From Corallococcus macrosporus DSM 14697 (GTDB lineage: Bacteria; Myxococcota; Myxococcia; Myxococcales; Myxococcaceae): 64,000 bases of DNA. The stretch is taken from contig NZ_CP022203.1 in the NCBI RefSeq assembly GCF_002305895.1, positions 6,916,001 through 6,980,000 of the forward strand, in the 5' to 3' direction. The translations under genes were made by a program, and so were the position numbers. Position 1 is the first letter of the stretch. Each line of letters starts with the position of its first letter. Of this stretch, positions 382 through 5,681 are shown in pieces. The notes below the pieces were generated by a model that saw nothing but the letters and a program-made list of their open reading frames with translations, made no database searches and was not told the origin of the DNA.

Positions 382-1026
382 GTGGACATGCCCGCGCCGT
401 CCATCATCGACATCCTCCGCCACATCGCGCGTGAGGAGCCGCTGCAAGGGACGGTGCGAGAGTTCCGGGGCCTCACCCGGGAGCACCTGGGGCAGCTCAT
501 CGAAGAGGCCGCCCAACGGCTCAGTGGAGCGCCGCCGGCCTCCGCTGCGTCAGTCCCAGGCACGCCGGAGCCGGTCGGGGCCGTGAGCCCTCCGGCGGAG
601 GCGGCGCCTGGCTCCGAGCAGCACCCTCGCCTGCGCGTCTATTCGGACGGCGCGGCCCGAGGGAATCCGGGGCCCGCGGGCGCGGGGGCGGTGCTGATGG
701 ACCCCACTGGCAACGTGGTGGCCCGCGTTGGGCGGTTCTTGGGACATCAGACGAACAACTGCGCGGAGTACATGGGCCTCTTGCTGGGCCTGAAGCACGC
801 GCAGTCCCTGGGCGCGCGCGAGGTGGACGTCTACGCGGACAGCGAGCTGCTGATTCGTCAGCTCGGCGGGCGCTACCAGGTGAAGAGCGCCACGCTGAAG
901 CCGCTGTACGAAGAGGCGCGGAAGCTGCTCAAGGGCTTCGCGAAGGTGAAGCTCCACCACGTCCCCCGCGCGCAGAACGCGGAAGCGGATGAGATGAGCA
1001 ACCGCGCGATTGATGAGCGGCTGTAG
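382..1026 (+). CDS. Ribonuclease HI family protein with N-terminal extension
   Basis: This 214-residue protein probably cleaves the RNA strand of RNA:DNA hybrids. Residues 83-214 form an RNase H type I domain. The active-site acids are visible: D89 in the motif YSDGAARGNPGPAG, E129 in NNCAEY, D153 in YADSELL and D203 near the C-terminus (NAEAD). The first 50 or so residues form a separate helical segment, joined by a Pro/Ala-rich linker (about 50-80). The start is GTG at 382, 12 bases after the zinc-ribbon gene, which suggests co-transcription; an ATG two codons later is an alternative. The domain resembles the bacterial/plant-type RNase H more than E. coli RnhA. Confidence 0.88.
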   Translation: MDMPAPSIIDILRHIAREEPLQGTVREFRGLTREHLGQLIEEAAQRLSGAPPASAASVPGTPEPVGAVSPPAEAAPGSEQHPRLRVYSDGAARGNPGPAGAGAVLMDPTGNVVARVGRFLGHQTNNCAEYMGLLLGLKHAQSLGAREVDVYADSELLIRQLGGRYQVKSATLKPLYEEARKLLKGFAKVKLHHVPRAQNAEADEMSNRAIDERL

Positions 1027-1335
1027 GTCGCATGCTCAAGCCCTGAAAAGGAGGGCCAGTATTTACGAGCAGCGCCTACGCCCTACCGCCACATACCGCC
1101 ACATACCGCCACATACCGCCAGCAATCCTCCGGCACGAAGTACTTCAGGGCAATCGCTCGAAGGTACGCTCGAAGCGAAACTTGCGCTCCATACGCACTC
1201 ATCGCACCCCCTCAGCGAGGACACTTGAGCCTTCGCACCGAACGATGCCCGTAGCAACGAATGCGCAGAGCCCGTCAGACCCAATGGATGGCTACTAGCC
1301 TGCCCAACCCATAGCGCACATGAGGAACTGGAGCG
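1027..1335. other. Intergenic region, low GC, with short repeats
   Basis: This 309-base gap between convergent genes (RNase H and the 109-residue ORF) has no credible gene. It holds a 10-bp tandem repeat at 1084-1120 and a 9-bp direct repeat (CGCTCGAAG) at 1155-1163 and 1167-1175. GC falls visibly compared with the RNase H gene, so this is probably the left boundary of the transferred retron segment. A 72-codon open frame at 1010-1228 overlaps the RNase H 3' end and shows no coding signature. Confidence 0.6.
1084..1120. repeat. 10-bp tandem repeat, about 3.7 copies
   Basis: The unit TACCGCCACA occurs three times in full and then as a seven-base partial copy (TACCGCC). The copies are perfect, which points to recent slippage. 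It lies 58 bases past the RNase H stop, in non-coding DNA. Confidence 0.95.
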
Positions 1336-1665
1336 TCACTCTGCAAACTCAGAGAAAGTGGAACCTCCAAACGCTCGGGCGGGGGCAGCGTCATAAGTTT
1401 CCCAGCGCTCAAACTGCACGCACATCACGGACTCATCGACCCGAGCCACCTTGGTCCGACCGATAACTCTGCTCGGAAACGGGCCATATTGCATTCTCTG
1501 CACATAGACCCATTCATCCCCGCCATCCAATGCACGCAGACATTGGTTAAGGATCTTTTTATTTGTCGTGATGAATTCAAGCCGCGTGGCGCTCGGATCC
1601 CATCCATTGAGATAGGGTTGCTTGGCCTCTGGGTGAGCAACAAGCAGCACTAGTCTTCTCGGCAT
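1336..1665 (-). CDS. Hypothetical protein (third gene of retron cassette)
   Basis: I do not recognise this 109-residue protein. It is soluble-looking, with no signal peptide, membrane segment or obvious catalytic motif. It begins MPRRLVLLVAHPEAK and has a beta-rich middle around WVYVQRMQYGPFPSRVIG. It starts one base after the stop of the 198-residue gene, so the two are almost surely co-transcribed behind the reverse transcriptase. Base composition is clearly poorer in GC than the core genes and codon third positions are mixed, which suggests transfer. It could be an accessory, immunity or effector subunit of the retron cassette; this is inference from position only. Confidence 0.65.
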   Translation of the reverse strand: MPRRLVLLVAHPEAKQPYLNGWDPSATRLEFITTNKKILNQCLRALDGGDEWVYVQRMQYGPFPSRVIGRTKVARVDESVMCVQFERWETYDAAPARAFGGSTFSEFAE

Positions 1666-1666
1666 G

Positions 1667-2263
1667 TCACCGGTCCCCCAACACTGTATTCGCGAACCTC
1701 GGCTCGAAGGTTAATAGCCACTCAGGAACATCATTACTCGGTGGCATTGGCGGCGTCATAGGAGCAGCCACTGCGCTAGTGAAGAACAAGTTCCATGCGA
1801 TGTACTGAAGACACTTTGCGAACAGCGGAATCTGAGCCTGTTCCTCCGTGAGCACGCGGAGAAACCCCGGAATCAAGTACATGTTCCACCCAGCAGTGAA
1901 GTAGTCAGGGTCGTGGACCGAGGCCCAAATGTGCGCCACTTCCCAGCCTACCGATACCTCGCGACTGCTCCCGTTCATCGACCGACCGATGTACTGGCCG
2001 AAGGCAACTCTTGCGGTTGTGTTATCGCAGACCTTTACCGGCCGGCCCCTCCAAACGGATACGTGACCTCTCTTCTTGTCCGGGTGATGCGCCCTCGATT
2101 CTCGTACACGGTCGGGCAGCATGACGGGTTTCCGACGTACCGCGCTCGGATGAATGAATAGCGAAGCATTCATGACAATCCGCACGACATCGTCGTTTGT
2201 TTTCCCAGTTGCCCACTCAAAGACGCGTAGCGGAGACGCCGAAAGCAGTTGCGGGACATTCAC
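1667..2263 (-). CDS. Hypothetical protein with HNH-like segment (second gene of retron cassette)
   Basis: This 198-residue protein starts 42 bases after the reverse transcriptase stop and ends one base before the next gene, so it looks like part of one operon. Residues about 70-140 contain WRGRPVKVCDNTTA followed by VGWEVAHIWASVHDPDYF and WNMYLIPGFLRVLTEEQ. The AHI motif and the downstream Asn in WNMYLIP resemble the first two elements of an HNH (beta-beta-alpha metal) nuclease. The usual third His is not evident, so the fold assignment is tentative. GC is well below that of the neighbours. If it is a nuclease it would be a natural retron effector. No function is established. Confidence 0.6.
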   Translation of the reverse strand: MNVPQLLSASPLRVFEWATGKTNDDVVRIVMNASLFIHPSAVRRKPVMLPDRVRESRAHHPDKKRGHVSVWRGRPVKVCDNTTARVAFGQYIGRSMNGSSREVSVGWEVAHIWASVHDPDYFTAGWNMYLIPGFLRVLTEEQAQIPLFAKCLQYIAWNLFFTSAVAAPMTPPMPPSNDVPEWLLTFEPRFANTVLGDR

Positions 2264-2305
2264 GATTGCCTCCGATTCAGGACACGCTGCCTATTCTGAG
2301 CAATT

Positions 2306-3637
2306 CTAGCCTGCCCACACAACCTGCTCGAAAGTCGCGCGCAGCTTCGCGCCTCGAGCCGGGTGCAGGTGTGCCACCCAGGCGATGCGTCCCAGCAGGT
2401 ACGCTCGGAAGTCGGGATGGCCTTCGGTGTTCTGGCTCGCGGGGCCTCGCGTGCGGCACAGGTGGAGGATGGCTTTCAGCCGTTCGTAGTCCGCACGGCT
2501 GACGGAGGGATGCGCATTCACCACCACGCCCGCGAGCCGTTGCTGAGCGCCCTGGCGCATCACCCGCGTCTTCCCGGCGCGCGTCATGAAGCCCTCCTCG
2601 CGGAGAATCTGGCTCACGTAGCGCAGCAACTTGTGCGTGCGCCGGGACAGTGCGTCCCCTCCTGAGAACGCCAGGTCATCCGCGTAGCGCGTGTATCGCG
2701 CGCCCATCGCCGTCGCGAGCGCCGACAGCCGCACATCGAGCCGATACGCCGCGAGGTTCGCCAGCGCGGGCGACGTGGGCGCCCCTTGTGGCAGATGACG
2801 CGATTCGAGCCGCCGCGCCAGACGCCAACGTGCATCCACTTCTGAGACAGATTCCGGCTGACGTGCCTGTGCCAACACCGCCTGGGGCGTGCGGTTCGTG
2901 CAGAGCCCAGCGAGTGCGTTCGTCACGCCGTCCGGATATCCCGCCGTGCGGAACACCGCCCAGATGCGCGCGGGCCGCACGGAGAAGAAGAAGTCCTCCA
3001 GGTCCACCCGTACCACCACCGCCTGCCCTGCGTGGGGCTCCACGAAGCTGCGGACACTCCGCCCCGCGACGAAGCCATGCGCCGCGTCGTGCGGTGGGAC
3101 GCGGTCCAGGATGCCGTGGAGCACCTTCCGCTGGACCTGCATCAAGTCCAGCCCCGGCTGCTCCAGGAGTCGCTCACCGCCGCTGCGCTTCGGAATCCAG
3201 GTGTACCGGTAGCGCCGCCACCGCCCCGGCTTGGACGTGCGCTCGATGCCCGGCGCATCCGCCAGCCAGTCCAACTGCGCCCCTGTCACGCCCAGCCAGT
3301 CCGCGAGGTCCGCCTGGGTCGGCAGCGAAGGCACCGGCCACGGCTGCCGGTCCATCCGAGGCTCGGAGGTCAGCCAGCGCACGATGCGCGCCCGCCCCGA
3401 CGAATCCGCAAAGCCCTTCGGAAACACGGGCCGCGAAGCCAGCACCTCCGCGAGCAGCTCCAACCGCGCATGCGGCGGACGCGGGAAGAAGATCATCGCG
3501 CTCCGGGCCATCGACCTCACCCAAGGCGCCCGTCCTCCAACAGCCTCCGTGCCCCGTTCAACGAGCCCCTTGAGCGTCCAGGGCCCCGCGAGGAACGCGG
3601 ACGCGAGCCCCTGTGCCACGACACGCCGCTCACTCAT
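2306..3637 (-). CDS. Retron-type reverse transcriptase
   Basis: This 443-residue enzyme would make branched msDNA from the RNA encoded just upstream. The RT core has the palm motif VDLEDFFFSV (catalytic D212), QGAPTSPALANL (about 284-295) and the YADD box (318-321). The AHGF segment near 186 fits a retron RT. The position of the retron VTG triplet reads LAG (LAGVVVN, 368-374). An N-terminal extension of about 135 residues carries a helical segment (LADWLGVTGAQLDWLAD) seen in myxobacterial retron RTs. The ATG lies 16 bases past the end of the inverted repeat that closes the msr-msd element. Its length differs from the 427 and 485 residues I recall for the M. xanthus Mx65 and Mx162 enzymes, so this may be another retron. 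GC is high, unlike its two downstream genes. Confidence 0.93.
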   Translation of the reverse strand: MSERRVVAQGLASAFLAGPWTLKGLVERGTEAVGGRAPWVRSMARSAMIFFPRPPHARLELLAEVLASRPVFPKGFADSSGRARIVRWLTSEPRMDRQPWPVPSLPTQADLADWLGVTGAQLDWLADAPGIERTSKPGRWRRYRYTWIPKRSGGERLLEQPGLDLMQVQRKVLHGILDRVPPHDAAHGFVAGRSVRSFVEPHAGQAVVVRVDLEDFFFSVRPARIWAVFRTAGYPDGVTNALAGLCTNRTPQAVLAQARQPESVSEVDARWRLARRLESRHLPQGAPTSPALANLAAYRLDVRLSALATAMGARYTRYADDLAFSGGDALSRRTHKLLRYVSQILREEGFMTRAGKTRVMRQGAQQRLAGVVVNAHPSVSRADYERLKAILHLCRTRGPASQNTEGHPDFRAYLLGRIAWVAHLHPARGAKLRATFEQVVWAG

Positions 3638-3652
3638 CGCCCGGACTCACGC

Positions 3653-3830
3653 CATGCGGCGGCATGGCCCCACCTGTCGTGTCTGGCGTGGCAGCTCCTG
3701 CGGCTTGCCGCAGTGTCTGCCTCGCGTGACGGTGTGCTCCTGATGCGTTGTCCCCGGGGGTACCCCGGAGAGGTAGAGGACCGCATCCTCACGGACCATC
3801 TACCCGCTGGGTTTCCAAGCCGCCGCATGA
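3653..3830 (-). ncRNA. Retron msr-msd non-coding RNA
   Basis: Directly upstream of the RT start is a segment of about 178 bases closed by a perfect 11-bp inverted repeat: CATGCGGCGGC at 3819-3829 (minus strand, a1) and its complement at 3653-3663 (a2). With one G-U pair and one mismatch the pairing extends to about 17 bp. Read on the minus strand, a1 is followed by two short msr-like hairpins: 3773-3792 (GTGAGGA/TCCTC.AC) and 3754-3768 (CCGGGG/CCCCGG). A long imperfect msd-like hairpin follows at 3671-3734, with a perfect CTGCGGC-AA-GCCGCAG tip. This order, a1-msr-msd-a2-RT, is the canonical retron layout. The branching G cannot be fixed by eye; it should lie just after a1. The predicted msDNA is about 65-75 nt. 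Confidence 0.85.
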
Positions 3831-3921
3831 CCCGCCGACGGTACACGCCGCACTTTCAAAAAGAAAATGCCGGGTGCGCAGGTCGCTTGTGTCCGGAGCA
3901 GACGGTGATTGATTCGCCCCC

Positions 3922-5260: not shown

Positions 5261-5658
<398 letters not shown>

Positions 5659-5681
5659 GTTTTCGTTTTGAATTCAGATGG

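What the first reader, a model, noticed from the sequence alone, without database searches (positions are those of the whole stretch)
3653..3830. Predicted msDNA of about 65-75 nt with a long msd hairpin
The a1/a2 arms are perfect over 11 bp and extend to about 17 bp with one G-U pair and one mismatch. Two small hairpins and one large imperfect hairpin lie in the expected order. M. xanthus is known for retrons Mx162 and Mx65; the hairpin size resembles Mx65, but the arm-to-arm span (155 bases) and the RT length do not fit what I recall for either. It may be a third myxobacterial retron or a variant of one of these.
Basis: partly seen in the sequence, partly recalled or inferred. Interest (0 to 1): 0.6.

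Follow-up and report, generated by a model that had tools for sequence, protein, structure and literature searches.

The report
A third Myxococcus retron, complete
Next to a reverse transcriptase gene this Myxococcus genome encodes a folded RNA, conserved across related species, that looks built to be copied into a small branched RNA-DNA molecule; it is a third retron beside the two known from Myxococcus, and I found no report of a laboratory test of it.

Summary
On the minus strand, directly upstream of a 443-aa reverse transcriptase (RT, 2306-3637), lies a 191-nt RNA with the full msr-msd plan: a1/a2 arms, an inner CCCA/UGGG stem ending at a candidate branch G (3807, in CAGC), two msr hairpins and one long msd hairpin. 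Thirteen base pairs keep pairing through changes on both sides across 16 species (0 of 500 shuffles match). An RNA model finds it beside the RT in 17 of 18 genomes; in the 18th the RT and half the msd are deleted. The same chromosome carries a 427-aa and a 485-aa RT that match Mx65 and Mx162; the window RT is only 41-43% identical to them and scores best as PADLOC 'other/outgroup', while both of those score best as type XIII. So it is a third retron, not a variant of either. Predicted msDNA is about 68 nt, by analogy with Mx65. No accessory gene is conserved, so a two-part retron (RNA plus RT) is most likely, with any effector encoded elsewhere or served by the RT's helical N-terminal domain. 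Production of msDNA is inferred, not shown. Verdict: real, a new member of a known kind.

The parts
3645..3835 (-). msr-msd noncoding RNA (modelled extent)
   Evidence: fold z -5.5; covariation in 16 species; covariance model R1 hit 202 bits
3819..3829 (-). a1 arm, core 11 bp
3653..3663 (-). a2 arm, core 11 bp
3808..3811 (-). CCCA, 5' side of inner stem next to the branch site
   Evidence: paired in 15-16 of 16 species
3669..3672 (-). UGGG, 3' side of inner stem
3807..3807 (-). candidate branch guanosine (CAGC, the motif given for Mx162 and Sa163)
   Evidence: inference from position and motif; the motif is in 15 of 16 sequences; motif list in PMC6868368
3773..3803 (-). msr hairpin 1
3751..3772 (-). 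msr hairpin 2 (UCCGGGG...CCCCGGGG), seen even in distant homologues
3681..3730 (-). msd hairpin, 50 nt imperfect, tip and base covary
   Evidence: also folds as DNA
3673..3740 (+). predicted msDNA, about 68 nt, 5' end at 3673
   Evidence: inference: placed by analogy with the 65 nt of Mx65 on its orthologue in this genome
3838..3845 (-). -10-like TGTACCGT just before a1, conserved as TGTA[CG][CG]GT or TAGGGT in most homologues
   Evidence: alignment; promoter function is inference
2306..3637 (-). retron reverse transcriptase, 443 aa
   Evidence: dN/dS about 0.2
3353..3637 (-). N-terminal helical domain of the RT (aa 1-95), no significant match to solved structures
3032..3046 (-). region X motif FVEPH in place of NAxxH
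   Evidence: motif from PMC6868368
2675..2686 (-). catalytic YADD
2528..2536 (-). region Y start, LAG in place of VTG
   Evidence: motif from PMC6868368

Best explanation
A complete, maintained retron made of a structured RNA and its reverse transcriptase, distinct from Mx65 and Mx162. The transcript starts just before a1 (inferred). The a1/a2 arms close into a long stem whose inner end (CCCA/UGGG) presents G3807. The RT binds the msr hairpins, uses the 2'-OH of that G as primer and copies the msd hairpin from 3673 to about 3740 (inferred from retron biochemistry). Host RNase H removes the copied RNA and leaves a branched RNA-DNA of about 68 nt (inferred). It most likely works as a two-part element. 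If it defends against phage, as tested retrons do, the effector is encoded elsewhere or is the RT's own N-terminal domain (open).
For: RNA architecture supported by covariation (13 pairs changed on both sides, 0 of 500 shuffles). RNA and RT occur together: 13 of 27 Myxococcus genomes have both and 14 have neither intact; in the phylum 17 of 18 RNA hits lie next to an RT, and the 18th is a deletion remnant. Distant full-length homologues have the RNA upstream too. RT fold is nearest to retron RTs: Ec86 Z 26.3, Eco2 25.7, Eco8 24.0, against 15-18 for group II intron, DGR and DRT2 RTs. PADLOC retron RT classes. YADD intact, dN/dS about 0.2. No conserved accessory gene: nine unrelated downstream groups among 18 genomes.
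Against: No msDNA has been shown. Region X (FVEPH) and region Y (LAG) depart from the usual retron motifs, though variants are common. G022 lacks the CAGC motif. The function is not supported by any partner gene.
Confidence: 0.88

Rival explanations
1. A variant or orthologue of retron Mx65 or Mx162.
For: Same genus, same overall plan, msDNA size close to Mx65, inner stem next to the branch site in both.
Against: Orthologues of both sit elsewhere in the same chromosome; 41-43% identity; separate clade; different best PADLOC class; the RNA model does not find their RNAs.
Confidence: 0.03
2. A reverse transcriptase system with its own RNA that is not a retron: the RNA is template or cofactor, as in DRT-type defence, without a branched msDNA.
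For: RT scores best as 'other/outgroup'; the X and Y motifs are altered.
Against: Fold match to retron RTs stands well above DRT2 (Z 26.3 against 15.6); RNA has arms, CAGC at the stem end, msr hairpins and an msd hairpin in retron order.
Confidence: 0.07
3. A three-part retron whose effector is one of the two ORFs downstream of the RT (1667-2263, 1336-1665).
For: Same strand, close behind the RT (43 bp), unknown function.
Against: The 198-aa ORF is found in none of 99 relatives and neither ORF lies beside any other homologue; both lie in a 56% GC insert, against 70% for the RT; M. vastator has only about 40 bp between RT and the next gene.
Confidence: 0.05
4. A decayed, inactive retron.
For: Some relatives have lost it: deletion remnants in G023 and G137, absent in G019.
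Against: Here the frame is open, YADD intact, dN/dS about 0.2 and the RNA covaries.
Confidence: 0.05

Closest known systems
Retron Mx65 (Retron-Mxa2), Myxococcus xanthus
   Same: Similar msDNA size, similar span, inner stem ending at the branch site, N of NAxxH replaced, no known partner gene.
   Different: Mx65 is represented by a separate locus in this genome; 41% RT identity; GAGC instead of CAGC; Mx65 keeps VTG; PADLOC type XIII.
Retron Mx162 (Retron-Mxa1) and Sa163
   Same: CAGC branch motif as given in PMC6868368; N-terminal extension of the RT.
   Different: Separate locus in this genome; 43% identity; 485 aa with NALAH and VTG; much longer msd; PADLOC type XIII.
PADLOC RT_other / RT_outgroup retron RTs
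   Same: Best-scoring class, matched over nearly the whole protein with its N-terminal part (557 and 525 bits).
   Different: The class is a set of sequences; I know of no characterised msr-msd or msDNA for it (from memory, the classification paper was not readable here).
Retron Ec86 (Retron-Eco1) RT structure
   Same: Closest solved fold: Z 26.3 over 302 residues.
   Different: 26% identity; the match starts at residue 91, so the N-terminal helical domain has no counterpart in the match; Ec86 was solved with an effector.

Membership tests
Retron | Retron-type RT with YADD | tested here: met
Retron | msr-msd RNA beside the RT with a1/a2 arms | tested here: met
   covariation over the arms, 95.7% of cells paired
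Retron | G in an AGC-like motif at the inner end of the arm stem | tested here: met
   CAGC at 3809-3806, 15 of 16 sequences
Retron | NAxxH in region X and VTG in region Y | tested here: inconclusive
   F[AVT]xxH and LAG; only the H and G are kept. Not strict criteria: NAxxH in 59% and VTG in 47% of a retron set (PMC4244168)
Retron | Branched msDNA with 2'-5' linkage | not testable with these tools
   needs bench work
Mx65 or Mx162 orthologue | RT is the orthologue by identity and tree | tested here: not met
   both orthologues are elsewhere in the genome
PADLOC type XIII retron | Best score to RT_XIII, as Mx65 and Mx162 have | tested here: not met
   320 bits against 557 for RT_other
Three-part (effector-bearing) retron | Conserved accessory gene in the cassette | tested here: not met
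   nine unrelated downstream groups in 18 genomes

The most novel reading that the evidence does not exclude
It founds a myxobacterial retron type outside the numbered types: a vertically inherited two-part retron with altered X and Y motifs (F[AVT]xxH, LAG), whose effector role is built into the RT's N-terminal helical domain, for which no solved structure was matched.
Probability: 0.2. Interest if true: 0.65.

Novelty: new member of a known kind. Interest (0 to 1): 0.42.

Why it matters
Retrons were discovered in Myxococcus, yet the job of the myxobacterial ones is unknown. Here a third one, coexisting with Mx65 and Mx162 in several genomes, comes with an RNA defined by covariation in 16 species, so msDNA, branch point and deletion phenotype can be tested directly. 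It also gives an RNA to an RT group that a defence database lists only as 'other/outgroup'.

Tried and rejected
Rfam: no retron family matched the window at gathering thresholds. Pfam, NCBIfam, PADLOC and PHROGs gave nothing for the two downstream ORFs. Those ORFs as effector: rejected, not found beside any homologue. The adjacent RNase HI gene as part of the system (retrons need RNase H): rejected, it lies beside the RT only in the five closest genomes. N-terminal domain by fold search: no significant hit, best E 2.0, which does not prove a new fold. RNA model on Mx65, Mx162 and sister-clade loci: chance-level hits only. A first grouping of neighbours picked a wrong ORF in one genome and was replaced. 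Literature: searches for a third Myxococcus retron found nothing; the 1990 PNAS, 1995 J Bacteriol and 2020 NAR classification papers were not held.

Full report
Where it is. The window is 6,916,001-6,980,000 of a single 8.97-Mb contig. An RT gene of 443 aa runs on the minus strand, 2306-3637. The reported RNA lies directly upstream on the same strand.

The observation. The 11-bp arms are exactly as described, 155 nt apart. Folded as RNA, 191 nt reach -107.6 kcal/mol against a shuffled mean of -80.9 (z -5.5, none of 200 shuffles as good). The fold has a1/a2 (16 pairs with one G-U and one mismatch), an inner CCCA/UGGG stem, two msr hairpins and a 50-nt imperfect msd hairpin.

Is it more than chance? 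I collected RT homologues from whole genomes. Thirteen of 27 Myxococcus genomes hold a full-length one, the window included (the 12 others at 51-87% identity), and three genomes of another genus in the family hold one at 71-74%. Their sixteen upstream regions align over the whole RNA. Of 56 pairs tested, 13 show changes on both sides with pairing kept, and 96.8% of cells pair. No shuffle of 500 reached that covariation, and sliding the partners drops pairing to 41-45%. A covariance model built from 13 of them finds the whole RNA once in each of those 13 Myxococcus genomes and in no others of the genus. In 189 genomes of the phylum it finds 18: 17 lie beside an RT, and one (G137) is a remnant in which a deletion runs from inside the msd to codon 418 of the RT. 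Distant RTs of the same build (41-47% identity) carry weaker matches directly upstream.

Which retron? The same chromosome has two more RTs. One is exactly 485 aa with NALAH; the other is exactly 427 aa with GAAPH, and GAGC in its leader. I recall 485 and 427 aa as the lengths of the Mx162 and Mx65 RTs. A review confirms for Mx65 the replaced N in region X and the GAGC (PMC6868368). The window RT is 41-43% identical to both, forms its own well supported clade (the joins between clades rest on long branches), and scores best to PADLOC RT_other and RT_outgroup over nearly its whole length, whereas both others score best to RT_XIII. It is therefore a third retron, of another class.

The protein. 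The AlphaFold model (mean pLDDT 85.8) matches retron RTs best: Ec86 Z 26.3, Eco2 25.7, Eco8 24.0, against 15-18 for group II intron, DGR and DRT2 RTs. YADD is intact. Region X reads FVEPH and region Y starts with LAG, where most studied retrons have NAxxH and VTG; such variation is known. The first 95 residues form a helical domain that is conserved in the family and had no significant match among solved structures. dN/dS of about 0.2 shows that the protein is under purifying selection.

Partners. Downstream regions of 18 homologues fall into nine unrelated groups. In this genome the RT is followed by two ORFs of unknown family in a 56% GC insert; the larger is in none of 99 relatives. Other genomes have an Mrr-like nuclease, an efflux pump gene or a protease there (read from the sequences, not tested further). 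No effector is conserved, so this looks like a two-part retron. Seven close genomes share the flank on the RNA side, and other groups share other flanks, which fits mostly vertical descent with occasional loss by deletion.

How it probably works. Shown here: the conserved RNA architecture, its linkage to a conserved RT, and the absence of a conserved effector. Inferred from retron biochemistry: priming at G3807, copying from 3673, removal of the template by RNase H. The msDNA length of about 68 nt comes from placing the known 65 nt of Mx65 on its orthologue here, where it ends about 11 nt past the msd hairpin; the same rule gives 3673-3740. The biological role is open; an anti-phage or stress role through a partner elsewhere, or through the N-terminal domain, is my best guess.

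Novelty. A new, complete member of a known kind. The RT class is already in a public defence database; the RNA matched no Rfam family, and I found no report of this retron. The key surveys were not readable here, so it may be listed in a supplement.

Noticed in passing
window 1030-2300: A 56% GC insert between the RNase HI gene and the RT, with two same-strand ORFs (198 and 109 aa) of no known family; the 198-aa ORF is in none of 99 relatives. M. vastator has only about 40 bp at this place and two other genomes have an Mrr-like nuclease gene, so the site seems to take up varied genes.
   Followed up: partly
window 1084-1120: Short tandem repeat (ACATACCGCC-like units) at the edge of the low-GC insert.
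   Followed up: no
window 382-1026: An RNase HI gene faces the retron tail to tail. Retrons need RNase H, but the two genes are neighbours only in the five closest genomes, so this is probably coincidence.
   Followed up: partly
L016-L026, L028-L030, L032: A further clade of retron-like RTs in Myxococcaceae (46-49% identical to the window RT over the RT domain), with NAxxH, a different N-terminal part and best PADLOC score to type XIII where tested (L017). Many genomes thus hold three or four retron RTs.
   Followed up: partly
L077 2346-2604 (G023) and L092 (G137): Deletion remnants of this retron: parts of a1 and msr are left, joined to the last codons of the RT. They show repeated loss.
   Followed up: yes
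window 5264-5659: RNase P RNA, bacterial class A (300.9 bits).
   Followed up: no
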